Of a stretch of 64,000 nucleotides of DNA, positions 16,576-64,000 are shown piece by piece. Numbering within the stretch: the first letter of the stretch is position 1; every line of letters starts with the position of its first letter. The notes below the pieces were generated by a model. That model saw only the letters and a program-made list of their open reading frames with translations. It was not told where the DNA came from and did no database searches. This stretch comes from Strigamia acuminata (lineage: Eukaryota > Arthropoda > Chilopoda > Geophilomorpha > Linotaeniidae): contig OX442317.1 in assembly GCA_949358305.1 (NCBI GenBank), positions 12,838,186 through 12,902,185 on the forward strand. The letters are read 5' to 3'. The position numbers were made by a program, and so were the translations under genes.

Positions 16576-16590
16576 CAGATACGAAGCTTT

Positions 16591-26268: not shown

Positions 26269-26275
26269 AAAACGA

Positions 26276-31917: not shown

Positions 31918-32834
31918 TGCTCGTCAATTTGATAGTAGTTTGATTTTATGTGTTCGAAAATGTAAAGAAGAGTTACTAATTTCGGTCTTATAATTGTATT
32001 ATTTATTTAGCAAATATCTAATCTTTTTCTGTTGTAATAGGAATTTTACATGTCTTTTTTGTGTGCCAATTTTCAGTAAAGACAATGTTTGTTAGGTATT
32101 TTATCTCTTAGAATGACAAGGTCAAGGTTTAGGAATTTTTAGTCTTGTTTTCCAATGTTTTCATGCTATGTTTACCTATTTCTAAGTCTTGTCCTGTTCC
32201 CAGTTCAGTTGTGAAGGCGGAATGACGGGTTTGAAGCATCTGAGTTGCTTTAAAGGTGCATTAGAAAAGAAGGAATTGTTAATTTTGTAATGGATTGCAA
32301 TTAATGCATTTTTACAGTGTATTTGACTTGCTTTAGATGCGTTATTTGCATGTTTAGTTAAGTTTATTCCTATTCTATTTGTTATAATTCTTTCCAATGA
32401 TTTCTGTTAATTTTAGTTGATTTTATCTCTATTATGAGGCACAATGCAAGCTTTAACTTATGTTATTTATGAATTTAGTCACTAGGTGCCTCATGAATTT
32501 GTTGTTGCTATAGAATTGTTGTTGTTATGAAGTTGTTACACTCTTGTTATGAAGAATTAGATGTAGTTAAGTTGAATTTGCCTCCATGTTAATGTTTTGA
32601 AATGATTAAAAGCATTATCTGGATTTTTCTACACAAAGCTTTATTTTATTCAACATCCAACATGTGTGAGTAAGGAGATTTAACCCCAAACTCCCTGGAG
32701 CAGCTCCCCACAAGATCCAGTGCAGAAACTCAAGTCAACTCATTTCTTCCCTCAGTATAGGCCTATGGGAAATTTGCCAAGAATCCCCCATCGCGTTACA
32801 ACTCGTCGCATCACGGCAGTGGCGAGTTGCAACA
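31918..32834 (+). mobile_element. 3' LTR of TK-family element, copy 2; left border of array
   Basis: Identical to 6589-7505, ending GTTGCAACA immediately before the first satellite monomer. Together with the LTR at 57991 it brackets the 25 kb array, with both 3' ends facing inward. Confidence 0.8.
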
Positions 32835-41800: not shown

Positions 41801-44800
41801 GCAACATCCAAGCAATGATTTGGGAGAATAGACTTTTGATCTCATCACAGTTGACTTAGCACAAACACCACAAGACCAATGTCTCTGAATGTTTAGAAAT
41901 AGTGTTTAAACCTTAGTAGAAGGCTTCAATGTAAGTGTTAGCAACATCCAAGCAATAATTTGAAAGAATAAACTTTTGATCTCATTTGACATCACAGTTG
42001 ACTTAGCACAAACACCACAAACCAATGTCTCTGAATGTTCTGAAATAGTGTTTAAACCTTAGTAGAAGGCTTCAATGTAAGTTTTAGCAACATCCAAGCA
42101 ATGATTTAGGAGAATAGACTTTTGATCTCATCACAGTTGACTTAGCACAAACATCACAAGACCAATGTCTCTGAATGTTTTGAAATAGTGTTTAAACCTT
42201 AGTAAAAAGCTTTAATGTAAGTTTTAGCAACATCCAAGCAATGATTTGGGAGAATAGACTTTTGATCTCATCACAGTTGACTTAGCACAAACACCACAAG
42301 ACCAATGTCTCTAAATGTTCTGAAATAGTGTTTAAACCTTAGTAGACGGCTTCAATGTAAGTTTTAGCAACATCCAAGCAATGATTTGGGAGAATAGACT
42401 TTTGATCTCATCACAGTTGACTTAGCACAAACATCACAAGACCAATGTCTCTGAATGTTCTGAAATAGTGTTTAAACCTTAGTAGAAAGCTTTAATGTAA
42501 GTTTTAGCAACATCCAAGCAATGATTTGAAAGAATAAACTTTTGATCTTATTTGACGTCACAGTTGACTTAGCACAAACACCACAAGACCAATGTATCTG
42601 AATGTTCTGAAATAGTGTTTAAACCTTAGTAGAAGGCTTCAATGTAAGTTTTAGCAACATCCAAGCAATGATTTGGGAGAATAGACTTTTGATCTCATCA
42701 CAGTTGACTTAGCACAAACACCACAAGACCAATGTCTCTGAATGTTTAGAAATAGTGTTTAAACCTTAGTAGAAGACTTCAATGTAAGTGTTAGCAACAT
42801 CCAAGCAATAATTTGAAAGAATAAACTTTTGATCTCATTTGACATCACAGTTGACTTAGCACAAACACCACAAGACCAATGTGTCTGAATGTTCTGAAAT
42901 AGTGTTTAAACCTTAGTAGAAGGCTTCAATGTAAGTTTTAGCAACATCCAAGCAATGATTTTGGAGAATAGACTTTTGATCTCATCACAGTTGACTTAGC
43001 ACAAACACCACAAGACCAATGTCTCCGAATGTTCTGAAATAGTGTTTAAACCTTAGTAGAAGGCTTCAATGTAAGTTTTAGCAACATCCAAGCAATGATT
43101 TGGAAGAATAAACTTTTGATCCCATTTGACATCACAGTTGACTTAGCACAAACATCACAAGACCAATGTTTCTGAATGTTCTGAAATAGTGTTTAAACCT
43201 TAGTAGAAAGCTTCAATGTAAGTTTTAGCAACATCCAAGCAATAATTTGAAAGAATAAACTTTTGATCTCATTTGACGTCACAGTTGACTTAGCACAAAC
43301 ACCACAAGACCAATGTCTCTGAATGTTTAGAAATAGTGTTTAAACCTTAGTAGAAGGCTTCAATGTAAGTGTTAGCAACATCCAAGCAATAATTTGAAAG
43401 AATAAACTTTTGATCTCATTTGACATCACAGTTGACTTAGCACAAACACCACAAACCAATGTCTCTGAATGTTCTGAAATAGTGTTTAAACCTTAGTAGA
43501 AGGCTTCAATGTAAGTTTTAGCAACATTTAAGCAATGATTTTGGAGAATAGACTTTTGATCTCATCACAGTTGACTTAGCACAAACATCACAAGACCAAT
43601 GTCTCTGAATGTTCTGAAATAGTGTTTAAACCTTAGTAGAAGGCTTTAATGTAAGTTTTAGCAACATCCAAGCAATGATTTGAAAGAATAAACTTTTGAT
43701 CTCATTTGACATCACAGTTGACTTAGCACAAACATCACAAGACCAATGTCTCTAAATGTTCTGAAATAGTGTTTAAACCTTAGTAGACGGCTTCAATGTA
43801 AGTTTTAGCAACATCTAAGCAATGATTTGGGAGAATAGACTTTTGATCTCATCACAGTTGACTTAGCACAAACATCACAAGACCAATGTCTCTGAATGTT
43901 TTGAAATAGTGTTTAAACCTTAGTAGAAAGCTTTAATGTAAGTTTTAGCAACATCCAAGCAATGATTTGGGAGAATAGACTTTTGATCTCATCACAGTTG
44001 ACTTAGCACAAACACCACAAGACCAATGTCTCTGAATGTTTAGAAATAGTATTTAAACCTTAGTAGAAGGCTTCAATGTAAGTGTTAGCAACATCCAAGC
44101 AATAATTTGAAAGAATAAACTTTTGATCTCATTTGACATCACAGTTGACTTAGCACAAACACCACAAACCAATGTCTCTGAATGTTCTGAAATAGTGTTT
44201 AAACCTTAGTAGAAGGCTTCAATGTAAGTTTTAGCAACATCCAAGCAATGATTTGGGAGAATAGACTTTTGATCTCATCACAGTTGACTTAGCACAAACA
44301 TCACAAGACCAATGTCTCTGAATGTTTAGAAATAGTGTTTAAACCTTAGTAGAAGGCTTCAATGTAAGTGTTAGCAACATCCAAGCAATAATTTGAAAGA
44401 ATAAACTTTTGATCTCATTTGACATCACAGTTGACTTAGCACAAACACCACAAACCAATGTCTCTGAATGTTCTGAAATAGTGTTTAAACCTTAGTAGAA
44501 GGCTTCAATGTAAGTTTTAGCAACATCCAAGCAATGATTTGGGAGAATAGACTTTTGATCTCATCACAGTTGACTTAGCACAAACACCACAAGACCAATG
44601 TCTCTGAATGTTTAGAAATAGTGTTTAAACCTTAGTAGAAGGCTTCAATGTAAGTGTTAGCAACATCCAAGCAATAATTTGAAAGAATAAACTTTTGATC
44701 TCATTTGACATCACAGTTGACTTAGCACAAACACCACAAACCAATGTCTCTGAATGTTCTGAAATAGTGTTTAAACCTTAGTAGAAGGCTTCAATGTAAG

Positions 44801-47800
44801 TTTTAGCAACATCCAAGCAATGATTTAGGAGAATAGACTTTTGATCTCATCACAGTTGACTTAGCACAAACATCACAAGACCAATGTCTCTGAATGTTTT
44901 GAAATAGTGTTTAAACCTTAGTAAAAAGCTTTAATGTAAGTTTTAGCAACATCCAAGCAATGATTTGGGAGAATAGACTTTTGATCTCATTTGACGTCAC
45001 AGTTGACTTAGCACAAACACCACAAGACCAATGTCTCTGAATGTTTAGAAATAGTGTTTAAACCTTAGTAGAAGGCTTCAATGTAAGTGTTAGCAACATC
45101 CAAGCAATAATTTGAAAGAATAAACTTTTGATCTCATTTGACATCACAGTTGACTTAGCACAAACACCACAAACCAATGTCTCTGAATGTTCTGAAATAG
45201 TGTTTAAACCTTAGTAGAAGGCTTCAATGTAAGTTTTAGCAACATCCAAGCAATGATTTGGGAGAATAGACTTTTGATCTCATCACAGTTGACTTAGCAC
45301 AAACACCACAAGACCAATGTCTCTGAATGTTTAGAAATAGTGTTTAAACCTTAGTAGAAGGCTTCAATGTAAGTGTTAGCAACATCCAAGCAATAATTTG
45401 AAAGAATAAACTTTTGATCTCATTTGACATCACAGTTGACTTAGCACAAACACCACAAACCAATGTCTCTGAATGTTCTGAAATAGTGTTTAAACCTTAG
45501 TAGAAGGCTTCAATGTAAGTTTTAGCAACATCCAAGCAATGATTTAGGAGAATAGACTTTTGATCTCATCACAGTTGACTTAGCACAAACATCACAAGAC
45601 CAATGTCTCTGAATGTTTTGAAATAGTGTTTAAACCTTAGTAAAAAGCTTTAATGTAAGTTTTAGCAACATCCAAGCAATGATTTGGGAGAATAGACTTT
45701 TGATCTCATCACAGTTGACTTAGCACAAACACCACAAGACCAATGTCTCTAAATGTTCTGAAATAGTGTTTAAACCTTAGTAGACGGCTTCAATGTAAGT
45801 TTTAGCAACATCCAAGCAATGATTTGGGAGAATAGACTTTTGATCTCATCACAGTTGACTTAGCACAAACACCACAAGACCAATGTTTCTGAATGTTCTG
45901 AAATAGTGTTTAAACCTTAGTAGAAGGCTTCAATGTAAGTTTTAGCAACATCCAAGCAATGATTTGGGAGAATAGACTTTTGATCTCATCACAGTTGACT
46001 TAGCACAAACACCACAAGACCAATGTGTCTGAATGTTCTGAAATAGTGTTTAAACCTTAGTAGAAGGCTTCAATGTAAGTTTTAGCAACATTTAAGCAAT
46101 GATTTTGGAGAATAGACTTTTGATCTCATCACAGTTGACTTAGCACAAACATCACAAGACCAATGTCTCTGAATGTTCTGAAATAGTGTTTAAACCTTAG
46201 TAGAAGGCTTTAATGTAAGTTTTAGCAACATCCAAGCAATGATTTGAAAGAATAAACTTTTGATCTCATTTGACATCACAGTTGACTTAGCACAAACACC
46301 ACAAACCAATGTCTCTGAATGTTCTGAAATAGTGTTTAAACCTTAGTAGAAGGCTTCAATGTAAGTTTTAGCAACATTTAAGCAATGATTTTGGAGAATA
46401 GACTTTTGATCTCATCACAGTTGACTTAGCACAAACATCACAAGACCAATGTCTCTGAATGTTCTGAAATAGTGTTTAAACCTTAGTAGAAGGCTTTAAT
46501 GTAAGTTTTAGCAACATCCAAGCAATGATTTGAAAGAATAAACTTTTGATCTCATTTGACATCACAGTTGACTTAGCACAAACATCACAAGACCAATGTC
46601 TCTAAATGTTCTGAAATAGTGTTTAAACCTTAGTAGACGGCTTCAATGTAAGTTTTAGCAACATCTAAGCAATGATTTGGGAGAATAGACTTTTGATCTC
46701 ATCACAGTTGACTTAGCACAAACATCACAAGACCAATGTCTCTGAATGTTTTGAAATAGTGTTTAAACCTTAGTAGAAAGCTTTAATGTAAGTTTTAGCA
46801 ACATCCAAGCAATGATTTGGGAGAATAGACTTTTGATCTCATCACAGTTGACTTAGCACAAACACCACAAGACCAATGTCTCTGAATGTTTAGAAATAGT
46901 ATTTAAACCTTAGTAGAAGGCTTCAATGTAAGTGTTAGCAACATCCAAGCAATAATTTGAAAGAATAAACTTTTGATCTCATTTGACATCACAGTTGACT
47001 TAGCACAAACACCACAAACCAATGTCTCTGAATGTTCTGAAATAGTGTTTAAACCTTAGTAGAAGGCTTCAATGTAAGTTTTAGCAACATCCAAGCAATG
47101 ATTTGGGAGAATAGACTTTTGATCTCATCACAGTTGACTTAGCACAAACATCACAAGACCAATGTCTCTGAATGTTTAGAAATAGTGTTTAAACCTTAGT
47201 AGAAGGCTTCAATGTAAGTGTTAGCAACATCCAAGCAATAATTTGAAAGAATAAACTTTTGATCTCATTTGACATCACAGTTGACTTAGCACAAACACCA
47301 CAAACCAATGTCTCTGAATGTTCTGAAATAGTGTTTAAACCTTAGTAGAAGGCTTCAATGTAAGTTTTAGCAACATCCAAGCAATGATTTGGGAGAATAG
47401 ACTTTTGATCTCATCACAGTTGACTTAGCACAAACACCACAAGACCAATGTCTCTGAATGTTTAGAAATAGTGTTTAAACCTTAGTAGAAGGCTTCAATG
47501 TAAGTGTTAGCAACATCCAAGCAATAATTTGAAAGAATAAACTTTTGATCTCATTTGACATCACAGTTGACTTAGCACAAACACCACAAACCAATGTCTC
47601 TGAATGTTCTGAAATAGTGTTTAAACCTTAGTAGAAGGCTTCAATGTAAGTTTTAGCAACATCCAAGCAATGATTTAGGAGAATAGACTTTTGATCTCAT
47701 CACAGTTGACTTAGCACAAACATCACAAGACCAATGTCTCTGAATGTTTTGAAATAGTGTTTAAACCTTAGTAAAAAGCTTTAATGTAAGTTTTAGCAAC

Positions 47801-50800
47801 ATCCAAGCAATGATTTGGGAGAATAGACTTTTGATCTCATCACAGTTGACTTAGCACAAACACCACAAGACCAATGTCTCTAAATGTTCTGAAATAGTGT
47901 TTAAACCTTAGTAGACGGCTTCAATGTAAGTTTTAGCAACATCCAAGCAATGATTTGGGAGAATAGACTTTTGATCTCATCACAGTTGACTTAGCACAAA
48001 CACCACAAGACCAATGTTTCTGAATGTTCTGAAATAGTGTTTAAACCTTAGTAGAAGGCTTCAATGTAAGTTTTAGCAACATCCAAGCAATGATTTGGGA
48101 GAATAGACTTTTGATCTCATCACAGTTGACTTAGCACAAACACCACAAGACCAATGTGTCTGAATGTTCTGAAATAGTGTTTAAACCTTAGTAGAAGGCT
48201 TCAATGTAAGTTTTAGCAACATTTAAGCAATGATTTTGGAGAATAGACTTTTGATCTCATCACAGTTGACTTAGCACAAACATCACAAGACCAATGTCTC
48301 TGAATGTTCTGAAATAGTGTTTAAACCTTAGTAGAAGGCTTTAATGTAAGTTTTAGCAACATCCAAGCAATGATTTGAAAGAATAAACTTTTGATCTCAT
48401 TTGACATCACAGTTGACTTAGCACAAACACCACAAACCAATGTCTCTGAATGTTCTGAAATAGTGTTTAAACCTTAGTAGAAGGCTTCAATGTAAGTTTT
48501 AGCAACATTTAAGCAATGATTTTGGAGAATAGACTTTTGATCTCATCACAGTTGACTTAGCACAAACATCACAAGACCAATGTCTCTGAATGTTCTGAAA
48601 TAGTGTTTAAACCTTAGTAGAAGGCTTTAATGTAAGTTTTAGCAACATCCAAGCAATGATTTGAAAGAATAAACTTTTGATCTCATTTGACATCACAGTT
48701 GACTTAGCACAAACATCACAAGACCAATGTCTCTGAATGTTTTGAAATAGTGTTTAAACCTTAGTAAAAAGCTTTAATGTAAGTTTTAGCAACATCCAAG
48801 CAATGATTTGGGAGAATAGACTTTTGATCTCATCACAGTTGACTTAGCACAAACACCACAAGACCAATGTCTCTAAATGTTCTGAAATAGTGTTTAAACC
48901 TTAGTAGACGGCTTCAATGTAAGTTTTAGCAACATCCAAGCAATGATTTGGGAGAATAGACTTTTGATCTCATCACAGTTGACTTAGCACAAACATCACA
49001 AGACCAATGTCTCTGAATGTTCTGAAATAGTGTTTAAACCTTAGTAGAAAGCTTTAATGTAAGTTTTAGCAACATCCAAGCAATGATTTGAAAGAATAAA
49101 CTTTTGATCTTATTTGACGTCACAGTTGACTTAGCACAAACACCACAAGACCAATGTATCTGAATGTTCTGAAATAGTGTTTAAACCTTAGTAGAAGGCT
49201 TCAATGTAAGTTTTAGCAACATCCAAGCAATGATTTGGGAGAATAGACTTTTGATCTCATCACAGTTGACTTAGCACAAACACCACAAGACCAATGTCTC
49301 TGAATGTTTAGAAATAGTGTTTAAACCTTAGTAGAAGACTTCAATGTAAGTGTTAGCAACATCCAAGCAATAATTTGAAAGAATAAACTTTTGATCTCAT
49401 TTGACATCACAGTTGACTTAGCACAAACACCACAAGACCAATGTGTCTGAATGTTCTGAAATAGTGTTTAAACCTTAGTAGAAGGCTTCAATGTAAGTTT
49501 TAGCAACATCCAAGCAATGATTTTGGAGAATAGACTTTTGATCTCATCACAGTTGACTTAGCACAAACACCACAAGACCAATGTCTCCGAATGTTCTGAA
49601 ATAGTGTTTAAACCTTAGTAGAAGGCTTCAATGTAAGTTTTAGCAACATCCAAGCAATGATTTGGAAGAATAAACTTTTGATCCCATTTGACATCACAGT
49701 TGACTTAGCACAAACATCACAAGACCAATGTTTCTGAATGTTCTGAAATAGTGTTTAAACCTTAGTAGAAAGCTTCAATGTAAGTTTTAGCAACATCCAA
49801 GCAATAATTTGAAAGAATAAACTTTTGATCTCATTTGACGTCACAGTTGACTTAGCACAAACACCACAAGACCAATGTCTCTGAATGTTTAGAAATAGTG
49901 TTTAAACCTTAGTAGAAGGCTTCAATGTAAGTGTTAGCAACATCCAAGCAATAATTTGAAAGAATAAACTTTTGATCTCATTTGACATCACAGTTGACTT
50001 AGCACAAACACCACAAACCAATGTCTCTGAATGTTCTGAAATAGTGTTTAAACCTTAGTAGAAGGCTTCAATGTAAGTTTTAGCAACATTTAAGCAATGA
50101 TTTTGGAGAATAGACTTTTGATCTCATCACAGTTGACTTAGCACAAACATCACAAGACCAATGTCTCTGAATGTTCTGAAATAGTGTTTAAACCTTAGTA
50201 GAAGGCTTTAATGTAAGTTTTAGCAACATCCAAGCAATGATTTGAAAGAATAAACTTTTGATCTCATTTGACATCACAGTTGACTTAGCACAAACATCAC
50301 AAGACCAATGTCTCTAAATGTTCTGAAATAGTGTTTAAACCTTAGTAGACGGCTTCAATGTAAGTTTTAGCAACATCTAAGCAATGATTTGGGAGAATAG
50401 ACTTTTGATCTCATCACAGTTGACTTAGCACAAACATCACAAGACCAATGTCTCTGAATGTTTTGAAATAGTGTTTAAACCTTAGTAGAAAGCTTTAATG
50501 TAAGTTTTAGCAACATCCAAGCAATGATTTGGGAGAATAGACTTTTGATCTCATCACAGTTGACTTAGCACAAACACCACAAGACCAATGTCTCTGAATG
50601 TTTAGAAATAGTATTTAAACCTTAGTAGAAGGCTTCAATGTAAGTGTTAGCAACATCCAAGCAATAATTTGAAAGAATAAACTTTTGATCTCATTTGACA
50701 TCACAGTTGACTTAGCACAAACACCACAAACCAATGTCTCTGAATGTTCTGAAATAGTGTTTAAACCTTAGTAGAAGGCTTCAATGTAAGTTTTAGCAAC

Positions 50801-53800
50801 ATCCAAGCAATGATTTGGGAGAATAGACTTTTGATCTCATCACAGTTGACTTAGCACAAACATCACAAGACCAATGTCTCTGAATGTTTAGAAATAGTGT
50901 TTAAACCTTAGTAGAAGGCTTCAATGTAAGTGTTAGCAACATCCAAGCAATAATTTGAAAGAATAAACTTTTGATCTCATTTGACATCACAGTTGACTTA
51001 GCACAAACACCACAAACCAATGTCTCTGAATGTTCTGAAATAGTGTTTAAACCTTAGTAGAAGGCTTCAATGTAAGTTTTAGCAACATCCAAGCAATGAT
51101 TTGGGAGAATAGACTTTTGATCTCATCACAGTTGACTTAGCACAAACACCACAAGACCAATGTCTCTGAATGTTTAGAAATAGTGTTTAAACCTTAGTAG
51201 AAGGCTTCAATGTAAGTGTTAGCAACATCCAAGCAATAATTTGAAAGAATAAACTTTTGATCTCATTTGACATCACAGTTGACTTAGCACAAACACCACA
51301 AACCAATGTCTCTGAATGTTCTGAAATAGTGTTTAAACCTTAGTAGAAGGCTTCAATGTAAGTTTTAGCAACATCCAAGCAATGATTTAGGAGAATAGAC
51401 TTTTGATCTCATCACAGTTGACTTAGCACAAACATCACAAGACCAATGTCTCTGAATGTTTTGAAATAGTGTTTAAACCTTAGTAAAAAGCTTTAATGTA
51501 AGTTTTAGCAACATCCAAGCAATGATTTGGGAGAATAGACTTTTGATCTCATTTGACGTCACAGTTGACTTAGCACAAACACCACAAGACCAATGTCTCT
51601 GAATGTTTAGAAATAGTGTTTAAACCTTAGTAGAAGGCTTCAATGTAAGTGTTAGCAACATCCAAGCAATAATTTGAAAGAATAAACTTTTGATCTCATT
51701 TGACATCACAGTTGACTTAGCACAAACACCACAAACCAATGTCTCTGAATGTTCTGAAATAGTGTTTAAACCTTAGTAGAAGGCTTCAATGTAAGTTTTA
51801 GCAACATCCAAGCAATGATTTGGGAGAATAGACTTTTGATCTCATCACAGTTGACTTAGCACAAACACCACAAGACCAATGTCTCTGAATGTTTAGAAAT
51901 AGTGTTTAAACCTTAGTAGAAGGCTTCAATGTAAGTGTTAGCAACATCCAAGCAATAATTTGAAAGAATAAACTTTTGATCTCATTTGACATCACAGTTG
52001 ACTTAGCACAAACACCACAAACCAATGTCTCTGAATGTTCTGAAATAGTGTTTAAACCTTAGTAGAAGGCTTCAATGTAAGTTTTAGCAACATCCAAGCA
52101 ATGATTTAGGAGAATAGACTTTTGATCTCATCACAGTTGACTTAGCACAAACATCACAAGACCAATGTCTCTGAATGTTTTGAAATAGTGTTTAAACCTT
52201 AGTAAAAAGCTTTAATGTAAGTTTTAGCAACATCCAAGCAATGATTTGGGAGAATAGACTTTTGATCTCATCACAGTTGACTTAGCACAAACACCACAAG
52301 ACCAATGTCTCTAAATGTTCTGAAATAGTGTTTAAACCTTAGTAGACGGCTTCAATGTAAGTTTTAGCAACATCCAAGCAATGATTTGGGAGAATAGACT
52401 TTTGATCTCATCACAGTTGACTTAGCACAAACACCACAAGACCAATGTTTCTGAATGTTCTGAAATAGTGTTTAAACCTTAGTAGAAGGCTTCAATGTAA
52501 GTTTTAGCAACATCCAAGCAATGATTTGGGAGAATAGACTTTTGATCTCATCACAGTTGACTTAGCACAAACACCACAAGACCAATGTGTCTGAATGTTC
52601 TGAAATAGTGTTTAAACCTTAGTAGAAGGCTTCAATGTAAGTTTTAGCAACATTTAAGCAATGATTTTGGAGAATAGACTTTTGATCTCATCACAGTTGA
52701 CTTAGCACAAACATCACAAGACCAATGTCTCTGAATGTTCTGAAATAGTGTTTAAACCTTAGTAGAAGGCTTTAATGTAAGTTTTAGCAACATCCAAGCA
52801 ATGATTTGAAAGAATAAACTTTTGATCTCATTTGACATCACAGTTGACTTAGCACAAACACCACAAACCAATGTCTCTGAATGTTCTGAAATAGTGTTTA
52901 AACCTTAGTAGAAGGCTTCAATGTAAGTTTTAGCAACATTTAAGCAATGATTTTGGAGAATAGACTTTTGATCTCATCACAGTTGACTTAGCACAAACAT
53001 CACAAGACCAATGTCTCTGAATGTTCTGAAATAGTGTTTAAACCTTAGTAGAAGGCTTTAATGTAAGTTTTAGCAACATCCAAGCAATGATTTGAAAGAA
53101 TAAACTTTTGATCTCATTTGACATCACAGTTGACTTAGCACAAACATCACAAGACCAATGTCTCTAAATGTTCTGAAATAGTGTTTAAACCTTAGTAGAC
53201 GGCTTCAATGTAAGTTTTAGCAACATCTAAGCAATGATTTGGGAGAATAGACTTTTGATCTCATCACAGTTGACTTAGCACAAACATCACAAGACCAATG
53301 TCTCTGAATGTTTTGAAATAGTGTTTAAACCTTAGTAGAAAGCTTTAATGTAAGTTTTAGCAACATCCAAGCAATGATTTGGGAGAATAGACTTTTGATC
53401 TCATCACAGTTGACTTAGCACAAACACCACAAGACCAATGTCTCTGAATGTTTAGAAATAGTATTTAAACCTTAGTAGAAGGCTTCAATGTAAGTGTTAG
53501 CAACATCCAAGCAATAATTTGAAAGAATAAACTTTTGATCTCATTTGACATCACAGTTGACTTAGCACAAACACCACAAACCAATGTCTCTGAATGTTCT
53601 GAAATAGTGTTTAAACCTTAGTAGAAGGCTTCAATGTAAGTTTTAGCAACATCCAAGCAATGATTTGGGAGAATAGACTTTTGATCTCATCACAGTTGAC
53701 TTAGCACAAACATCACAAGACCAATGTCTCTGAATGTTTAGAAATAGTGTTTAAACCTTAGTAGAAGGCTTCAATGTAAGTGTTAGCAACATCCAAGCAA

Positions 53801-56800
53801 TAATTTGAAAGAATAAACTTTTGATCTCATTTGACATCACAGTTGACTTAGCACAAACACCACAAACCAATGTCTCTGAATGTTCTGAAATAGTGTTTAA
53901 ACCTTAGTAGAAGGCTTCAATGTAAGTTTTAGCAACATCCAAGCAATGATTTGGGAGAATAGACTTTTGATCTCATCACAGTTGACTTAGCACAAACACC
54001 ACAAGACCAATGTCTCTGAATGTTTAGAAATAGTGTTTAAACCTTAGTAGAAGGCTTCAATGTAAGTGTTAGCAACATCCAAGCAATAATTTGAAAGAAT
54101 AAACTTTTGATCTCATTTGACATCACAGTTGACTTAGCACAAACACCACAAACCAATGTCTCTGAATGTTCTGAAATAGTGTTTAAACCTTAGTAGAAGG
54201 CTTCAATGTAAGTTTTAGCAACATCCAAGCAATGATTTAGGAGAATAGACTTTTGATCTCATCACAGTTGACTTAGCACAAACATCACAAGACCAATGTC
54301 TCTGAATGTTTTGAAATAGTGTTTAAACCTTAGTAAAAAGCTTTAATGTAAGTTTTAGCAACATCCAAGCAATGATTTGGGAGAATAGACTTTTGATCTC
54401 ATCACAGTTGACTTAGCACAAACACCACAAGACCAATGTCTCTAAATGTTCTGAAATAGTGTTTAAACCTTAGTAGACGGCTTCAATGTAAGTTTTAGCA
54501 ACATCCAAGCAATGATTTGGGAGAATAGACTTTTGATCTCATCACAGTTGACTTAGCACAAACACCACAAGACCAATGTTTCTGAATGTTCTGAAATAGT
54601 GTTTAAACCTTAGTAGAAGGCTTCAATGTAAGTTTTAGCAACATCCAAGCAATGATTTGGGAGAATAGACTTTTGATCTCATCACAGTTGACTTAGCACA
54701 AACACCACAAGACCAATGTGTCTGAATGTTCTGAAATAGTGTTTAAACCTTAGTAGAAGGCTTCAATGTAAGTTTTAGCAACATTTAAGCAATGATTTTG
54801 GAGAATAGACTTTTGATCTCATCACAGTTGACTTAGCACAAACATCACAAGACCAATGTCTCTGAATGTTCTGAAATAGTGTTTAAACCTTAGTAGAAGG
54901 CTTTAATGTAAGTTTTAGCAACATCCAAGCAATGATTTGAAAGAATAAACTTTTGATCTCATTTGACATCACAGTTGACTTAGCACAAACACCACAAACC
55001 AATGTCTCTGAATGTTCTGAAATAGTGTTTAAACCTTAGTAGAAGGCTTCAATGTAAGTTTTAGCAACATTTAAGCAATGATTTTGGAGAATAGACTTTT
55101 GATCTCATCACAGTTGACTTAGCACAAACATCACAAGACCAATGTCTCTGAATGTTCTGAAATAGTGTTTAAACCTTAGTAGAAGGCTTTAATGTAAGTT
55201 TTAGCAACATCCAAGCAATGATTTGAAAGAATAAACTTTTGATCTCATTTGACATCACAGTTGACTTAGCACAAACATCACAAGACCAATGTCTCTAAAT
55301 GTTCTGAAATAGTGTTTAAACCTTAGTAGACGGCTTCAATGTAAGTTTTAGCAACATCTAAGCAATGATTTGGGAGAATAGACTTTTGATCTCATCACAG
55401 TTGACTTAGCACAAACATCACAAGACCAATGTCTCTGAATGTTTTGAAATAGTGTTTAAACCTTAGTAGAAAGCTTTAATGTAAGTTTTAGCAACATCCA
55501 AGCAATGATTTGGGAGAATAGACTTTTGATCTCATCACAGTTGACTTAGCACAAACACCACAAGACCAATGTCTCTGAATGTTTAGAAATAGTATTTAAA
55601 CCTTAGTAGAAGGCTTCAATGTAAGTGTTAGCAACATCCAAGCAATAATTTGAAAGAATAAACTTTTGATCTCATTTGACATCACAGTTGACTTAGCACA
55701 AACACCACAAACCAATGTCTCTGAATGTTCTGAAATAGTGTTTAAACCTTAGTAGAAGGCTTCAATGTAAGTTTTAGCAACATCCAAGCAATGATTTGGG
55801 AGAATAGACTTTTGATCTCATCACAGTTGACTTAGCACAAACATCACAAGACCAATGTCTCTGAATGTTTAGAAATAGTGTTTAAACCTTAGTAGAAGGC
55901 TTCAATGTAAGTGTTAGCAACATCCAAGCAATAATTTGAAAGAATAAACTTTTGATCTCATTTGACATCACAGTTGACTTAGCACAAACACCACAAACCA
56001 ATGTCTCTGAATGTTCTGAAATAGTGTTTAAACCTTAGTAGAAGGCTTCAATGTAAGTTTTAGCAACATCCAAGCAATGATTTGGGAGAATAGACTTTTG
56101 ATCTCATCACAGTTGACTTAGCACAAACACCACAAGACCAATGTCTCTGAATGTTTAGAAATAGTGTTTAAACCTTAGTAGAAGGCTTCAATGTAAGTGT
56201 TAGCAACATCCAAGCAATAATTTGAAAGAATAAACTTTTGATCTCATTTGACATCACAGTTGACTTAGCACAAACACCACAAACCAATGTCTCTGAATGT
56301 TCTGAAATAGTGTTTAAACCTTAGTAGAAGGCTTCAATGTAAGTTTTAGCAACATCCAAGCAATGATTTAGGAGAATAGACTTTTGATCTCATCACAGTT
56401 GACTTAGCACAAACATCACAAGACCAATGTCTCTGAATGTTTTGAAATAGTGTTTAAACCTTAGTAAAAAGCTTTAATGTAAGTTTTAGCAACATCCAAG
56501 CAATGATTTGGGAGAATAGACTTTTGATCTCATTTGACGTCACAGTTGACTTAGCACAAACACCACAAGACCAATGTCTCTGAATGTTTAGAAATAGTGT
56601 TTAAACCTTAGTAGAAGGCTTCAATGTAAGTGTTAGCAACATCCAAGCAATAATTTGAAAGAATAAACTTTTGATCTCATTTGACATCACAGTTGACTTA
56701 GCACAAACACCACAAACCAATGTCTCTGAATGTTCTGAAATAGTGTTTAAACCTTAGTAGAAGGCTTCAATGTAAGTTTTAGCAACATCCAAGCAATGAT

Positions 56801-57990
56801 TTGGGAGAATAGACTTTTGATCTCATCACAGTTGACTTAGCACAAACACCACAAGACCAATGTCTCTGAATGTTTAGAAATAGTGTTTAAACCTTAGTAG
56901 AAGGCTTCAATGTAAGTGTTAGCAACATCCAAGCAATAATTTGAAAGAATAAACTTTTGATCTCATTTGACATCACAGTTGACTTAGCACAAACACCACA
57001 AACCAATGTCTCTGAATGTTCTGAAATAGTGTTTAAACCTTAGTAGAAGGCTTCAATGTAAGTTTTAGCAACATCCAAGCAATGATTTAGGAGAATAGAC
57101 TTTTGATCTCATCACAGTTGACTTAGCACAAACATCACAAGACCAATGTCTCTGAATGTTTTGAAATAGTGTTTAAACCTTAGTAAAAAGCTTTAATGTA
57201 AGTTTTAGCAACATCCAAGCAATGATTTGGGAGAATAGACTTTTGATCTCATCACAGTTGACTTAGCACAAACACCACAAGACCAATGTCTCTAAATGTT
57301 CTGAAATAGTGTTTAAACCTTAGTAGACGGCTTCAATGTAAGTTTTAGCAACATCCAAGCAATGATTTGGGAGAATAGACTTTTGATCTCATCACAGTTG
57401 ACTTAGCACAAACACCACAAGACCAATGTTTCTGAATGTTCTGAAATAGTGTTTAAACCTTAGTAGAAGGCTTCAATGTAAGTTTTAGCAACATCCAAGC
57501 AATGATTTGGGAGAATAGACTTTTGATCTCATCACAGTTGACTTAGCACAAACACCACAAGACCAATGTGTCTGAATGTTCTGAAATAGTGTTTAAACCT
57601 TAGTAGAAGGCTTCAATGTAAGTTTTAGCAACATTTAAGCAATGATTTTGGAGAATAGACTTTTGATCTCATCACAGTTGACTTAGCACAAACATCACAA
57701 GACCAATGTCTCTGAATGTTCTGAAATAGTGTTTAAACCTTAGTAGAAGGCTTTAATGTAAGTTTTAGCAACATCCAAGCAATGATTTGAAAGAATAAAC
57801 TTTTGATCTCATTTGACATCACAGTTGACTTAGCACAAACATCACAAGACCAATGTCTCTAAATGTTCTGAAATAGTGTTTAAACCTTAGTAGACGGCTT
57901 CAATGTAAGTTTTAGCAACATCTAAGCAATGATTTGGGAGAATAGACTTTTGATCTCATCACAGTTGACTTAGCACAAACATCACAAGAC
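32835..57990 (+). repeat. 25.2 kb satellite array with higher-order repeats
   Basis: Uninterrupted tandem array of about 175-180 monomers of 139, 140 and 147 bp, in one orientation, AT-rich. Rare variants recur at fixed distances: GATCCCATTTG at 33245, 36238, 37958, 41398, 43118, 49680; AGTATTTAAACC near 38890, 44050, 46900, 50612, 53462, 55593. The spacings 1720, 5160 (3 x 1720), 2850, 6562 and 4981 repeat, showing blocks copied within the array. No gene, and no long run of non-monomer sequence. A CENP-B-box-like motif was not seen. Confidence 0.97.
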
Positions 57991-58917
57991 TGTTGCAACT
58001 CGCCACTGCCGTGATGCGACGAGTTGTAACGCGGTGGGGAATTATTGGCAAATTTCCCATAGGCCTATACTTTGCTTAGCTGAGAGGAGAAGTGAGTTGA
58101 CTTGAGTTTCTGCACTGGATCTTGTGGGGAGCTGCTCCAGGGAGTTTGGGGTTAAATCTCCCTACTCACACATGTTGGATGTTGAATAAAATAAACCTTT
58201 GTGTAGAAAAATCCAGATAATGCTTTTAATCATTTCAAAACATTAACATGGAGGCAAATTCAACTTAACTACATCTAATTCTTCATAACAAGAGTGTAAC
58301 AACTTCATAACAACAACAATTCTATAGCAACAACAAATTCATGAGGCACCTAGTGACTAAATTTCTAAATAACATAAGTTAAAGCTTGCATTGTGCCTCA
58401 TAATAGAGATAAAATCAACTAAAATTAACAGAAATCATTGGAAAGAATTATAACAAATAGAATAGGAATAAACTTAACTAAATATGCAAATAACGCATCT
58501 AAAGCAAGTCAAATACACTGTAAAAATGCATTAATTGCAATCCATTACAAAATTAACAATTCCTTCTTTTCCAATGCACCTTTAAAGCAACTCAGATGCT
58601 TCAAACCCGTCATTCCGCCTTCACAACTGAACTGGGAACAGGACAAGACTTAGAAATAGGTAAACATAGCATGAAAACATTGGAAAACAAGACTAAAAAT
58701 TCCCAAACCTTGACCTTGTCATTCTAAGAGATAAAATACCTAACAAACATTGTCTTTACTGAAAATTGGCACACAAAAAAGACATGTAAAATTCCTATTA
58801 CAACAGAAAAAGATTAGATATTTGCTAAATAAATAATACAATTATAAGACCGAAATTAGTAACTCTTCTTTACATTTTCGAACACATAAAATCAAACTAC
58901 TATCAAATTGACGAGCA
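57991..58917 (-). mobile_element. 3' LTR of the TK element
   Basis: On the plus strand it begins TGTTGCAACTCG directly after satellite DNA. The terminus can fold, because GTTGCAACTCG (57992-58002) pairs with CGAGTTGTAAC (58020-58030) with one mismatch. The inner boundary is taken as the TG/CA nearest the polypurine tract and is uncertain by about ten bases. Confidence 0.82.
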
Positions 58918-58925
58918 GTTGTGGT

Positions 58926-58943
58926 CTCTCTTTCCTCCTTTCT
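58926..58943 (-). promoter_or_regulatory. Polypurine tract of the TK element
   Basis: The minus strand reads AGAAAGGAGGAAAGAGAG just upstream of the 3' LTR, about 106 bases after the stop codon. Same as in the truncated copies. Confidence 0.65.
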
Positions 58944-59049
58944 GTTGCTCGAAACAGAGATTGCCGCCGAAAAGAAAAGAAGGTGAAGAAGAACCTCTTA
59001 GCAATCTGAAAACTTCTCATCCACCTAGGATCAGCTCCCTAATGACTCC

Positions 59050-62037
59050 TTAAGGTAAGCGCAATTTTTTGCGGATCAAACTGGCCACCCATGGAGGTAA
59101 TCTTCGATTCAAAATCGCTAAACTTAAATGTGCCGCTCCATTAATTAGCTTTCTCTTGACTTCTATAGAATTGATTGATTTCTGAAAACAGGTACGACAC
59201 GTTGGCTTGTATCTCTCTTCTCCTCCCACAACCTGAACTTGCGTTTCACCCGATATTCGTTTGGTGAACGACGCTTGGTTTCCACAAAAGTGGCATTTGG
59301 CATGAAGTTTGACAATAGTTTCCGCTAGTGGAATGAGATTAGATACTGCCTTGAATTCCTGTCTCTTAAAATCACCATTTAAAGCGGCAATTATTACATT
59401 CTTTCCTTCGTTCGCCATTTTGTCGGAAAACGAATCAATGTCTCCGAAAAATTGCCCTTCGTCGATACCTATCGTCTTGACCGACTCCGCAATTTTCTTG
59501 ATTTCCTGTAACGACGCGACCCGAACCGCTGGACGTCGTTGTCCGGTGTGGCTAACCATTTCATCTTTACTATATCTAACGTCTGTCAAATGCTTAACAA
59601 GCAGGCAAGAATTTTCTTCTTCATTTCGGATTACATTAAGTAAAGCAGTAGTTTTTCCAGAAAACATTGGGCCAATTACTAAATGTATATTTCCCGTGGC
59701 CTTTGTGACTGCATTTGATCTTCTGTGCGAATTGGTGAGTTTCTTGCGACTCCATTTCAATATCTTCCTCCATTTACTTAAACCCTTTTCTTCATCTTTT
59801 TTGAAATTTTTTGGAAATTCTCCTTTCTTTTCCGTAGACTCCAGTGTGTCAGGACTCTGAGAAATCGCCATCTTGCCCGACCTTATCCCTTTAAACGTCC
59901 GCTTTCCATCCATTTCCAATTCGATGGGGACGTCAGGATGCCGTACCTCCAGCTCGCTAGAGCGGCTCGCGGCAAAACGAGAAGCGATGACGCCTTTTGC
60001 TCGTACTCCACCCTTTTCGCTTTTCTCGTCGGGCATTGATGTGGAATTCGCCTGTCCAAACCCGCCTTTGTCCTTTTTTGAAGTGTTGAAAGTCATCTTC
60101 TTTCCAGAATCGATCGCCATACACGATACATCTCCCAGTGAGATATCGTCTTTGTAGATGGAAGGCTCTTTTGAGTTAATTTGTCCGTTTAAAATCCATC
60201 CAAAAACTGTTTTTATCATTCCTAATTCTGGACTAATTCTCTTCGTTCCCGCTTGAATTATTTTCCACCATGCTCCGCTTCCGATCAAGACATCTACCTC
60301 ATCTGACACGGAGGGATGTGGTTCTGCCATCTCAAGATTAAACGACTTGATTTGTTGCAGCGTCTGGTGATCTACCACTCCCTTTATATTGGGAAGTGTG
60401 TCGGTATCAAGAGCAAATACAGACACTTTCTGCTTGTCGTGACGAGACTGCAACTCGAATCTAAACACGTCATGACTTGTAGGAACTGGTTCCTTGTTCA
60501 GCAGACACTGGGTCATGGTGTGATACGTCTCAATCTTGTTTAGGTGTAATTTCTTTGCTAACCGCTTCGTAATATATGAACGATGACTACCCGGATCGAG
60601 TAATCCACGAACTGGGATTGTTTCGCCACTCTTTCGGACGAACAATGCTGTGAAAACCATTAGCTGGACGTCACTTGAGACCGACAACGAGACGTTGGCG
60701 GAGACGTTCTCTTCTTTGGTATCAGGTGGCTTTTCCGCATGACCTCTGTTACAAATTGAAGAATGGTGTCGACCACCGCATGATCGGCAACAAAATTTTA
60801 CAGGGCAGTTACCCACTGTATGGCTTGGTCTCAGGCAATTAAAGCATAGACGTTTTCGCTTAACGATGTCGTATTTCTCCGAAACTTCCAGATTTGCGTC
60901 GCAATTATTGTTGAAATGATCTCCTTCACAGAAGGCACAGATCAATTTCCGGACTGGACCTGATTTTGGTTTGAATGATTCTTTCGTATTAGACCCGAAT
61001 GACGTATTTTGCGCAACCGCGCAAGATGACATGGTCCCTCGTAATTCTTCTTTTTGCTCTCTAGTTGCTGGTTTCTCACTCTTCTTGGTGACTTTCTGAC
61101 TGGTAAATACGCTATCGTCTGATAATTCTGCTACTCTGACTTCGCTTGCTACAAATTCGAGAAATAAATTAACGTTTTCCACGTTTCCTTTGTAAATCCT
61201 ATGAAATCGTCTTCCCAATTCCGGTGGAAACTTCCGCAATAATTCCGGGATTAGAAATAATCCAGTAGTCGTAACTGGGAACTTCAACTGTTCTAATGTT
61301 CGGAAAGCACCGGTGAGGGACGTCAATAGAGATTTTACTGGCTTGATTGAGTACAAATCTTTAACTGCTTCGGCTTCACGAATTTTCCTCGCCAGAGCGT
61401 TCTTTTGGGCTACTTCTGACCCAAAAAGTCCTTCTAAACTGCTAAGTGCCATTAAATACGAATCGTTAGTAAGTGGGTACGACTTAATCGCCACTTCAGC
61501 TTCCCCGATACAGCTTGATTTAAGATATTGAAGTTTTTCGACGTTCGATAACTTGGCATCGGCGTCAACTGTGGTTGAAAACATATCCATGAAGCTCTTA
61601 TACTCCATCGGATTCCCGTCGAATTTCTGCAATGTCAGCTTTGGAAGCTTTGTAGTCTTCCTTGAGATTATCGATGAGTTGTTCAGAAATCCAGAATTCA
61701 TTAGCGTATTTCCGCCGGGATGTGCCCCAAACTTATCCTGCATCTGTTTTGAAAATTTCGTCCTTTGCTTAAGAAGATTGACCTTAGTCCTAATGTCTTC
61801 GAGACGTCTCAAACTAAGCAGGTAATCTGAACGTTCTATCTTGTCTTTAAAGACAGCGAGCTCATCAATAAGGTCACTCAACTGCGCATCTATTGTTGCG
61901 TGGAGAGCTTCAAGCTCACCCCCGTCGAGAACGTTTGCAGATGTCGAGAGCAGATCCTCTGCTCCTTGGGCCTTGGCTTGCCATTGTGTTTCTTTCTCTT
62001 CCGCTGCTTCCGCGGTCAAACCAGCTGCAGTTGCCAT
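59050..62037 (-). CDS. Gag-protease-thymidine kinase fusion polyprotein
   Basis: 995 codons without interruption. Residues 1-440 are BEL/Pao Gag: the DUF1759-like region (about 125-305) aligns with element A throughout, followed by zinc knuckles C367/C370/H374/C379, C398/C401/H406/C411 and C417/C420/H424/C429. Residues 455-615 are a DUF1758-type aspartic protease with D481 in LLDPGS. Residues 616-780 are a lysine- and serine-rich linker that I do not recognise. Residues 783-955 are a type II thymidine kinase: P-loop GPMFSGKTT (789-797), TDVRYS near 818-823, DEGQFF with the expected catalytic Glu860, zinc pairs C915/C918 and C947/C950 enclosing the lasso region. Such enzymes phosphorylate thymidine to dTMP with ATP. 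A 40-residue basic-hydrophobic tail ends the protein. No intron interrupts the kinase, so capture from a spliced transcript is likely. RT, RNase H and integrase are missing exactly where RT should begin. All kinase motifs are intact, which suggests it was maintained for function. Confidence 0.95.
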   Translation of the reverse strand: MATAAGLTAEAAEEKETQWQAKAQGAEDLLSTSANVLDGGELEALHATIDAQLSDLIDELAVFKDKIERSDYLLSLRRLEDIRTKVNLLKQRTKFSKQMQDKFGAHPGGNTLMNSGFLNNSSIISRKTTKLPKLTLQKFDGNPMEYKSFMDMFSTTVDADAKLSNVEKLQYLKSSCIGEAEVAIKSYPLTNDSYLMALSSLEGLFGSEVAQKNALARKIREAEAVKDLYSIKPVKSLLTSLTGAFRTLEQLKFPVTTTGLFLIPELLRKFPPELGRRFHRIYKGNVENVNLFLEFVASEVRVAELSDDSVFTSQKVTKKSEKPATREQKEELRGTMSSCAVAQNTSFGSNTKESFKPKSGPVRKLICAFCEGDHFNNNCDANLEVSEKYDIVKRKRLCFNCLRPSHTVGNCPVKFCCRSCGGRHHSSICNRGHAEKPPDTKEENVSANVSLSVSSDVQLMVFTALFVRKSGETIPVRGLLDPGSHRSYITKRLAKKLHLNKIETYHTMTQCLLNKEPVPTSHDVFRFELQSRHDKQKVSVFALDTDTLPNIKGVVDHQTLQQIKSFNLEMAEPHPSVSDEVDVLIGSGAWWKIIQAGTKRISPELGMIKTVFGWILNGQINSKEPSIYKDDISLGDVSCMAIDSGKKMTFNTSKKDKGGFGQANSTSMPDEKSEKGGVRAKGVIASRFAASRSSELEVRHPDVPIELEMDGKRTFKGIRSGKMAISQSPDTLESTEKKGEFPKNFKKDEEKGLSKWRKILKWSRKKLTNSHRRSNAVTKATGNIHLVIGPMFSGKTTALLNVIRNEEENSCLLVKHLTDVRYSKDEMVSHTGQRRPAVRVASLQEIKKIAESVKTIGIDEGQFFGDIDSFSDKMANEGKNVIIAALNGDFKRQEFKAVSNLIPLAETIVKLHAKCHFCGNQASFTKRISGETQVQVVGGEERYKPTCRTCFQKSINSIEVKRKLINGAAHLSLAILNRRLPPWVASLIRKKLRLP

Positions 62038-62365
62038 TTATTCTCGAGAAAGAGAGAATGAGAATAAAAATTCTATTCAACAACTCAATCACTGCTAATT
62101 AAATCCCCACGAATATTCTCCGAACTTCACAGACTCTTACTTATACTTGCTTAACGTTAATTCAAATGCGGTGTGCAAATGAAAAACGACCTCGAAATAA
62201 AATGCTAAACTCAACTCCGAAATGCCACAGACAATCTGACTTGACACACTATACGTAATACACTGGGACGGAATTATTGACCGCACAAATAAACTTATCC
62301 GCATAAATGTCTTGATAATTCCCCCAAAATGCACTTAGTTCGAAATTAATAATTAATATCTAACC

Positions 62366-62580
62366 GCACAACCGAGATAAATTAGTTATCTTTTACAATA
62401 ACACTGCACAAAAGAGATAAATAGTTATATTTTACAATAACCCCGCACAAAGAGATAAATAGTTATATTTTACAATAACCCCGCACAAAGAGATAATAGC
62501 TATAGTTTATAATAGCGCTGCACAAAAGAGATAATTAGCTATCATATACAATAGCTCCGCACTTAAGAGATAATAACTTG
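62366..62580 (-). repeat. Tandem repeat, 37-40 bp, about 5.5 units
   Basis: Units start with GCACAA..GAGATAA at 62366, 62406, 62445, 62483, 62520 and 62559 (the last is diverged). Each carries a TAGTTAT/ATAACTA-like pair and TACAATA. The pattern is specific to this leader and absent from the other elements here. Confidence 0.85.
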
Positions 62581-63115: not shown

Positions 63116-63183
63116 AATGCAATGACGTGCACTGAAATCCACTGGAAGAACTGGACGAAAATCCTGGTTGGCAACAACAAAAT

Positions 63184-63201
63184 CCTTGGGTCACGGTACC
63201 A
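63184..63201 (-). promoter_or_regulatory. Primer-binding site of the TK element
   Basis: The minus strand reads TGGTACCGTGACCCAAGG starting four bases after the 5' LTR ends in GCAACA. It is the same type of tRNA primer site as in elements A and C. Confidence 0.75.
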
Positions 63202-63205
63202 AAAA

Positions 63206-64000
63206 TGTTGCAACTCGCCACTGCCGTGATGCGACGAGTTGTAACGCGGTGGGGAATTATTGGCAAATTTCCCATAGGCCTATACTTTGCTTAGCTGAGA
63301 GGAGAAGTGAGTTGACTTGAGTTTCTGCACTGGATCTTGTGGGGAGCTGCTCCAGGGAGTTTGGGGTTAAATCTCCCTAATCACACATGTTGGATGTTGA
63401 ATAAAATAAACCTTTGTGTAGAAAAATCCAGATAATGCTTTTAATCATTTCAAAACATTAACATGGAGGCAAATTCAACTTAACTACATCTAATTCTTCA
63501 TAACAAGAGTGTAACAACTTCATAACAACAACAATTCTATAGCAACAACAAATTCATGAGGCACCTAGTGACTAAATTTCTAAATAACATAAGTTAAAGC
63601 TTGCATTGTGCCTCATAATAGAGATAAAATCAACTAAAATTAACAGAAATCATTGGAAAGAATTATAACAAATAGAATAGGAATAAACTTAACTAAATAT
63701 GCAAATAACGCATCTAAAGCAAGTCAAATACACTGTAAAAATGCATTAATTGCAATCCATTACAAAATTAACAATTCCTTCTTTTCCAATGCACCTTTAA
63801 AGCAACTCAGATGCTTCAAACCCGTCATTCCGCCTTCACAACTGAACTGGGAACAGGACAAGACTTAGAAATAGGTAAACATAGCATGAAAACATTGGAA
63901 AACAAGACTAAAAATTCCCAAACCTTGACCTTGTCATTCTAAGAGATAAAATACCTAACAAACATTGTCTTTACTGAAAATTGGCACACAAAAAAGACAT
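63206..64000 (-). mobile_element. 5' LTR of the TK element (cut by window end)
   Basis: It matches 57991-58785 with one difference (A63380 versus C58165). The remaining ~130 bases and the outer target-site duplication lie beyond the window. Confidence 0.9.

What the first reader, a model, noticed from the sequence alone, without database searches (positions are those of the whole stretch)
59050..62037. A BEL/Pao retrotransposon that has exchanged RT-RNase H-integrase for a thymidine kinase
Seen: one open frame encodes Gag, zinc knuckles, protease and then a type II thymidine kinase with P-loop (GPMFSGKTT), DEGQFF and two CxxC pairs, flanked by near-identical LTRs, primer site and polypurine tract. 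Known: BEL/Pao elements normally encode RT, RNase H and integrase at this place, and TK1-type enzymes make dTMP. Inference: a host mRNA was captured, giving a transducing element that is mobilised in trans and may raise dTTP for its own reverse transcription in non-dividing cells. I know of no described BEL/Pao element with this content.
Basis: partly seen in the sequence, partly recalled or inferred. Interest (0 to 1): 0.95.

Follow-up and report, generated by a model that had tools for sequence, protein, structure and literature searches.

The report
Jumping gene carrying a thymidine kinase
In a centipede genome, a family of retrotransposons without copying enzymes of its own carries instead an enzyme of DNA building-block supply (thymidine kinase) that selection appears to have kept intact.

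Summary
Window 57991-64171 (the last 171 bases lie past the window) is an LTR element: 966-bp LTRs with one mismatch, a 4-bp target duplication, a tRNA-His-like primer site. Its 995-aa frame is BEL/Pao Gag, zinc knuckles, protease and a complete TK1-type thymidine kinase; no RT, RNase H or integrase was found. The claimed polypurine tract is absent. Host: the centipede Strigamia acuminata (scaffold lengths match its published assembly). Of 150 scored TK hits, 84 lie in frames of full Gag-TK length, in two families (Gag about 57% identical). Kinase dN/dS is about 0.12 in both comparisons, far below the adjacent linker. A multicopy third family (892 aa; one copy read) has a wrecked kinase, so the kinase is not indispensable. 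Gag-family copies cluster in one compact block per large scaffold, often in satellite. A pol+ BEL family (window 17572-22494 is a member) is concentrated in the same blocks and has a similar primer site: the likely helper, though its Gag is only 38% identical. Related TKs sit in three other repeat classes. I read it as a non-autonomous BEL/Pao lineage, mobilised in trans, whose kinase probably supports reverse transcription. Catalysis, dTTP supply and helper use are inferred.

The parts
57991..58956 (-). 3' LTR, 966 bp
57987..57990 (.). left copy of the 4-bp target-site duplication AGAC, inside the 140-bp satellite; the right copy is at 64172-64175, outside the window
58957..58996 (-). stretch before the 3' LTR where a polypurine tract would be expected; pyrimidine-rich, with a motif like CTTTTCGsCGGCAATCT shared by families 1 and 2
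59050..62037 (-). single Gag-protease-thymidine kinase frame, 995 aa
61192..61623 (-). Gag DUF1759 (res. 139-282)
60748..60939 (-). three zinc knuckles (res. ~367-430)
60178..60603 (-). retropepsin-like protease with DPGS motif (res. ~479-620); Pfam matches below cut-off
59707..60117 (-). fast-evolving linker (res. 641-777) where RT follows in pol+ relatives
59185..59694 (-). TK1-type thymidine kinase (res. 782-951) with P-loop, DEGQFF and two CxxC pairs
59053..59172 (-). C-terminal tail (res. 956-995), recognisable in families 1, 2 and 3
63181..63201 (-). tRNA-His-like primer binding site, 4 nt inside the 5' LTR
63206..64000 (-). 5' LTR (966 bp; continues to window position 64171, read in L028)
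17572..22494 (+). pol+ BEL element of the candidate helper family (1640 aa; most family frames are 1751 aa)
32830..57990 (.). 140-bp satellite array into which the element is inserted

Best explanation
It is a non-autonomous LTR retrotransposon of the BEL/Pao lineage. An ancestor kept LTRs, primer site, Gag and protease, lost everything from the start of RT to the end of integrase, and gained a host-lineage TK1-type thymidine kinase fused in frame behind the protease. Shown: anatomy, copy number, target duplications, near-identical LTR pairs, constraint on the kinase, clustering in compact blocks. Inferred: the Gag-TK polyprotein builds particles with the kinase inside or cut free; RT, RNase H and integrase come in trans from a pol+ BEL family, most likely the 1751-aa family of the same blocks; the kinase makes dTMP where cDNA is made and eases dTTP shortage (through host dTMP and dTDP kinases) in cells with little TK1. 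The kinase is an advantage, not a necessity, since one branch lost it and still spread.
For: Gag-protease-TK frame between LTRs. Of 150 scored TK hits (205 candidates) 84 are in frames of full Gag-TK length: 32 of 995, 5 of 1002, 13 of 1009, 34 of 1013 aa; the kinase letters of a sample of these loci, whole or in part, are printed. TSDs in 4 of 4 copies with both flanks held. The window copy's two LTRs match each other better than any of the other 38 listed hits. LTR pairs: 1 mismatch in 966; three other copies 99.93% over 1362, 100% over 1358, 100% over 950 held bases. Kinase dN/dS 0.117 (family 1 vs L002) and 0.127 (L023 vs L025); linker 0.46 and 0.98. Host TKs on one side of a 100/98 branch, BEL TKs 97/93. 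Gag-protease tree: pol+ L047 outside the pol-less rows, 86/88. Helper family: of 67 listed copies 56 are on eight large scaffolds, 37 inside the Gag-family spans, 54 within 0.5 Mb; of 111 other pol+ BELs on those scaffolds 0 inside and 2 within 0.5 Mb. Its primer site is tRNA-His-like too.
Against: The candidate helper's Gag is 38% identical and the nearest pol+ Gag found 42%, so co-packaging is not obvious. The primer site matches tRNA-His imperfectly. No polypurine tract at the expected place. The helper's LTR end was read by eye from one 5' copy; its 3' LTR is not in the window. Family 3 (19 rows with an 892-aa frame; one read, L045) lacks DEGQFF and the zinc cysteines. Spans come from the element rows themselves, and the 111 BELs are a score-ranked sample. 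dN/dS has no significance test; within family 1 there are too few changes, and there the protease (1 synonymous, 6 replacement, window vs L024) and tail ran above 1. No expression, enzyme or mobility data.
Confidence: 0.6

Rival explanations
1. The kinase is passive cargo: it came in by a template switch, does nothing for the element, and the element spreads because Gag and LTR signals suffice.
For: Family 3 keeps the Gag-protease frame and is multicopy with a wrecked kinase (19 rows, one copy read). L046 has the same Gag lineage with another, hydrophobic C-terminus. The bdelloid-rotifer study of captured retroelement ORFs saw no significant departure from neutrality in them (PMC5408684, discussion read).
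Against: Kinase dN/dS 0.117 at dS 1.09 and 0.127 in a second family, against 0.46 and 0.98 for the adjacent linker.
Confidence: 0.15
2. The kinase domain is kept for another role, such as nucleotide-dependent particle assembly, oligomerisation of the polyprotein or benefit to the host, not for dTMP.
For: TK1 enzymes are oligomeric ATP-binding proteins (recalled). The C-terminal tail and a P-loop-like remnant stay in family 3 although the rest of the kinase core is gone.
Against: P-loop, DEGQFF and zinc motifs are all kept in the family 1 and family 2 copies whose whole kinase was read.
Confidence: 0.15
3. The copies multiply mainly by satellite array expansion, segmental duplication or unequal exchange, not by retrotransposition.
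For: Copies are packed in compact blocks; satellite at 7 of 10 distinct 3' flanks; L027 holds two elements in tandem; family 1 Gag is 97-100% alike in the full-length frames.
Against: 4 of 4 testable copies have their own TSD, each different; 3 of 10 distinct 3' flanks are not satellite; the window copy's own LTR pair is most alike.
Confidence: 0.08
4. Assembly chimera of a BEL element and a TK gene.
For: The window holds a suspicious 12.6-kb perfect duplication beside a gap.
Against: The Gag-TK frame recurs in 84 of 150 scored TK hits, in two families about 57% alike in Gag, on several large scaffolds; the assembly is from 98-fold HiFi reads (PMC10556566, passages). The reads themselves were not seen.
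Confidence: 0.01

Closest known systems
LTR retrotransposons of bdelloid rotifers with captured enzymatic ORF3 (GDSL esterase, DEDDy exonuclease) and dUTPase domains (PMC5408684; abstract and discussion read)
   Same: Enzyme genes taken up by LTR elements; the same enzyme type shared between different kinds of repeats in one genome, as TK is here.
   Different: Those elements have gag and pol and add an ORF; here RT-RNase H-IN is missing, the enzyme is a salvage kinase, and its codons look constrained.
TR-GAG and other gag-only non-autonomous LTR elements of plants (search listing and recall)
   Same: LTRs and gag without pol; presumed mobilisation in trans.
   Different: BEL/Pao lineage of an animal; carries a conserved enzyme.
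Acutely transforming retroviruses with Gag fused to a captured host gene (recalled)
   Same: In-frame Gag-host enzyme fusion with loss of pol and need of a helper.
   Different: Genomic and multiplied in a germline, old enough for two diverged families; enzyme of nucleotide metabolism.
Retroviral and retroelement dUTPases (recalled; also in the abstract of PMC5408684)
   Same: Nucleotide-pool enzyme encoded by a retroelement.
   Different: Thymidine kinase, and no pol in the same element.
BEL/Pao elements (survey PMC3118150: listing and word search only; kinase and non-autonomous do not occur in its main text)
   Same: Gag, zinc knuckles, protease, LTR plan; Gag-protease 38-42% identical to pol+ elements of the same genome.
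   Different: No RT, RNase H or integrase; TK in their place.

Membership tests
BEL/Pao retrotransposons | BEL-type Gag with zinc knuckles, branching among pol+ BEL elements | tested here: met
   (two pol+ rows in the tree)
BEL/Pao retrotransposons | LTR pair, short TSD, primer binding site | tested here: met
BEL/Pao retrotransposons | RT, RNase H and integrase in pol | tested here: not met
   so a derived non-autonomous lineage, not a full member
BEL/Pao retrotransposons | polypurine tract before the 3' LTR | tested here: not met
TK1-type (type II) thymidine kinase | PF00265 over the whole model, P-loop, DEGQFF, two CxxC | tested here: met
TK1-type (type II) thymidine kinase | thymidine phosphorylation | not testable with these tools
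gag-only non-autonomous LTR elements (TR-GAG-like) | LTRs and gag, no pol, multicopy | tested here: met
gag-only non-autonomous LTR elements (TR-GAG-like) | mobilised by an identified helper | tested here: inconclusive
   co-localisation and primer-site class only

The most novel reading that the evidence does not exclude
A retroelement lineage replaced its own polymerase with a nucleotide-salvage kinase that makes dTMP inside or beside its particles, a self-supply of DNA precursor for borrowed reverse transcriptase. In the same genome relatives of that kinase sit in three further repeat classes, so thymidine kinase would be a repeatedly recruited accessory of selfish DNA in this centipede lineage.
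Probability: 0.35. Interest if true: 0.92.

Novelty: new variant of a known kind. Interest (0 to 1): 0.82.

Why it matters
It makes the question of whether dNTP supply limits retrotransposition in animal germlines testable with a natural experiment: two families with a constrained kinase and one that lost it, in one genome. It suggests that a Gag-protease element can trade all its replication enzymes for a metabolic one and still multiply, and it offers a candidate helper-parasite pair clustered in the same blocks, one of them on the Y.

Tried and rejected
Rejected: assembly chimera (recurs in 84 of 150 scored TK hits). Rejected as artefacts: the 1999-aa and 1118-aa frames around TK hits in C130; they run through N stretches. 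Rejected: the first guess that window 5722-6456 was another TK class; it is a truncated family 1 copy. Not resolved: the nature of TK classes A, B and C (no LTR pair, terminal inverted repeat or second Pfam-recognised gene made out within the held 10 kb; only part of their frames was given to Pfam); the order of BEL, B and A+C TKs (AU tests p 0.40 and 0.35); whether an intron-bearing host TK1 exists (150 of 205 candidates scored). Led nowhere: Rfam on 57900-64000 (no match at gathering threshold); structure prediction (switched off); protein search for Gag-TK fusions elsewhere (2 hits, a Trebouxia protein and a metagenomic protein with kinase domains, no Gag domain listed for either). Literature: no title or abstract start in the listings describes a thymidine kinase in an LTR element; two searches found 0 papers. 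Full texts behind those listings were not read, except what is named. The library lacks most subscription journals, and BEL/Pao with its slash cannot be searched.

Rows dropped: the tree used 52 of the 122 proteins then held, chosen by hand (P0087 and P0012 fell out for lack of my P-loop pattern); one search used 29 of those 122 and 7 of 10 host rows. Searches used only rows on eight large scaffolds: 98 of 126 Gag-family rows (its one pol+ row left out), 111 of 150 rows, 56 of 67 rows. Two of the 98 rows on C1 may be pieces of one copy. In one search one of 12 printed rows (L041) is an LTR-primer-site junction and not a flank, and L001 and L026 are one locus, leaving 10 loci. A note written says 11 distinct flanks; 10 is right.
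Full report
WHAT IS THERE. The frame at 59050-62037 (-) is 995 aa and reads Gag (DUF1759), three zinc knuckles, a retropepsin-like protease with a DPGS motif, a linker, and a complete TK1-type thymidine kinase. The Pfam matches to the protease are below the curated cut-offs, but the region aligns with the protease of pol+ relatives. The best solved-structure match is 1w4r, named thymidine kinase, 4.4e-44. The LTRs are 57991-58956 and 63206-64171 (the last 171 bases are past the window end, read in L028), 966 bp each with one mismatch, flanked by AGAC on both sides. The primer site lies 4 nt inside the 5' LTR. No RT, RNase H or integrase match was found in the frame, and no other frame between the LTRs exceeds 183 aa.

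HOST. Mitochondrial COX1 (L048) is closest to the geophilomorph centipede Mecistocephalus, 87%, with horseshoe crabs and another centipede at 86%. The published assembly of Strigamia acuminata has a longest scaffold of 66,985,994 bp, an N90 of 9,836,499 bp and a 15.07-kb mitochondrial genome (PMC10556566, abstract and passages); C1, C11 and C157 here have 66,985,994, 9,836,499 and 15,068 bases. The total differs slightly: 237,517,015 bases in 157 contigs here, 237,534,282 in 158 scaffolds there. By length C5 is chromosome 4, C13 the Y and C12 the X.

COPIES. A TK search of the genome scored 150 of 205 candidates; 84 rows lie in frames of full Gag-TK length (32 of 995 aa, 5 of 1002, 13 of 1009, 34 of 1013), 8 more in shorter or stop-bearing frames that I assign to the BEL families (two of them read, L002 and L003), 40 in a 190-aa class, 18 in other classes. 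A Gag search (127 of 1073 candidates scored) gives family 1 at 97-100% in the full-length frames (94-97% in shorter pieces), family 2 at 56-59%, and a family 3 at 44-45% with an 892-aa frame in 19 rows. L002 is a diverged relative of family 1 with a kinase 78% identical. All 4 copies with both flanks held have a TSD: AGAC in the window copy, GTTGA in L023, CAAC in L025, TTTG in L024. Of 10 distinct loci with a readable 3' flank 7 are in the 140-bp satellite and 3 are not. Other LTR pairs: 99.93% over 1362 bp (L023), 100% over 1358 bp (L025), 100% over 950 held bases (L026), so the insertions examined are young.

SELECTION. Nei-Gojobori dN/dS, without significance test. Family 1 against L002: kinase 0.117 (dS 1.09), Gag part held (190 codons) 0.071, protease 0.072, linker 0.46, tail 0.37. 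Within family 2 (L023, L025): kinase 0.127 (16 synonymous, 8 replacement changes), Gag 0 (11 and 0), protease 0.21, linker 0.98, tail 0.87. So the kinase is in the range of the protease and well below its linker in both. Within family 1 changes are few: window against L026, kinase 1 and 1; against L024, kinase 6 and 2 (0.092), protease 1 and 6 (above 1), tail above 1. Between families 1 and 2 synonymous sites are saturated. The kinases of repeat classes A and C give 0.126; pairs inside classes A, B and C have few changes (B 0.34).

LOSS OF THE KINASE. Family 3, read in one copy (L045), keeps a P-loop-like remnant and the C-terminal tail but has lost the DEGQFF and zinc-cysteine regions, and Pfam finds no TK in it. 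L046 has the same Gag lineage with a different, hydrophobic C-terminus. On the Gag-protease tree of 8 rows, with the window pol+ element as outgroup, pol+ L047 branches first, then family 3 (86/88), then L046 (100/99), then families 1 and 2 (99/99). The simplest history is one loss of pol with gain of TK, then decay in family 3 and loss or replacement in L046; the 86/88 node is not a starred one, so this is likely, not proven.

WHERE THE KINASE CAME FROM. The TKs of this genome (BEL, A, B, C) stand on one side of a 100/98 branch against 29 database TKs; BEL TKs are monophyletic, 97/93 (similar). The best identity listed for class C is 50% (120 of 683 hits shown). The order of BEL, B and A+C is open. 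An origin from the host lineage's TK1 is therefore likely, but donor and route are not shown: the other classes are uninterrupted frames inside large repeats too.

HELPER. The 98 Gag-family rows on eight large scaffolds fall in one compact stretch on each: 2.3 of 67.0 Mb on C1, 3.4 of 17.0 on C5, 2.4 of 10.3 on C13, 0.8 of 14.7 on C8, 0.9 of 12.3 on C9, 0.45 of 9.8 on C11, single rows on C4 and C6; 31 of the 98 are on C13, the Y by length. Of 111 other pol+ BEL rows on these scaffolds 0 are inside the stretches and 2 (C8) within 0.5 Mb. The stretches are drawn from the rows themselves and the 111 are the best-scoring, not a random, sample. The pol+ element at window 17572-22494 (PF05380, integrase zinc domain; FMDD) belongs to a 98-100% family: 67 rows listed of 3590 candidates, 43 with a 1751-aa frame, three of these with a stop. 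Of 56 on the eight scaffolds 37 are inside the stretches and 54 within 0.5 Mb. Its LTR begins TGTTGC at 15014, right at the satellite edge; I place its end at a GCAACA about 20 nt before the primer site TGGTAGCCGTGACCAGGATT by eye, since no second LTR is held. ARAGORN calls L049 tRNA-His (GTG), whose 3' end with CCA fits this primer class; families 1 and 2 match less well. Of 188 primer-site-like matches in the genome (1 in the reversed control) 100 were listed; the nearest pol+ relative L047 shows none at its place. The helper's Gag is only 38% identical to family 1, which is the weakest link of the helper hypothesis.

MECHANISM, shown and inferred. Shown: anatomy, multiplication with TSDs, youth of the copies examined, constraint on the kinase, co-localisation. 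Inferred: particles of Gag-TK, RT and integrase from the 1751-aa family, tRNA-His priming, shared targeting through the helper's integrase, and dTMP production at the site of cDNA synthesis. A TK1-type enzyme makes only dTMP; dTTP needs host kinases (recalled). Neither family 1 nor family 2 has a KEN motif in its kinase part; KEN is seen in some vertebrate TKs of the alignment and is known there as a degradation signal (recalled), but it is also missing in arthropod TKs of that alignment, so this is weak.

NOVELTY. Captured enzymes in LTR elements are known (bdelloids, PMC5408684; retroviral dUTPase, recalled), as are gag-only elements (TR-GAG, listing). A pol-less BEL/Pao lineage with a conserved thymidine kinase did not turn up in the protein search or in the listings. 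I class it as a new variant of a known kind.

Noticed in passing
window 1-12610 and 25330-37939: 12,610 bases repeated at 100% identity on either side of a 200-N gap (12611-12810): probably an unresolved assembly duplication.
   Followed up: partly
L018, L019, L020 (190 aa); L009-L011, L014-L017, L021, L022 (216-269 aa where not run through N or cut); L012, L013 (221/239 aa): Three further classes of intact thymidine kinase frames inside large repeats with no other gene made out; 40 rows of the 190-aa class. A against C kinase dN/dS 0.126.
   Followed up: partly
L045: Family 3: Gag-protease with a wrecked thymidine kinase but a conserved tail; 19 rows with an 892-aa frame.
   Followed up: partly
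L046: Same Gag lineage with a hydrophobic, apparently multi-span C-terminus in place of pol or TK.
   Followed up: no
window 17572-22494: Pol+ BEL family (1751-aa frames) concentrated in the same blocks as the Gag-TK elements.
   Followed up: partly
G000 C13 (the Y by length), 7.9-10.3 Mb: 31 of the 98 Gag-family rows lie in this stretch of the Y; none was listed on C12, the X by length.
   Followed up: no
window 919-939 and 26248-26268 (-): A different element's primer site, TGGTGCCGTGAACCATGGATTCGAACCTGG, a nearly perfect tRNA-His complement.
   Followed up: no
window 5722-7500 and its copy from 31051: Truncated family 1 element (kinase part and 3' LTR) joined to other sequence.
   Followed up: partly
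window 23481-25058 (-): BEL pol fragment with integrase zinc domain and DUF5641.
   Followed up: no
window 13531-14469: About 0.94 kb of non-satellite sequence between satellite stretches, possibly a solo LTR; no match to 15015-32830 or 57985-64000.
   Followed up: no
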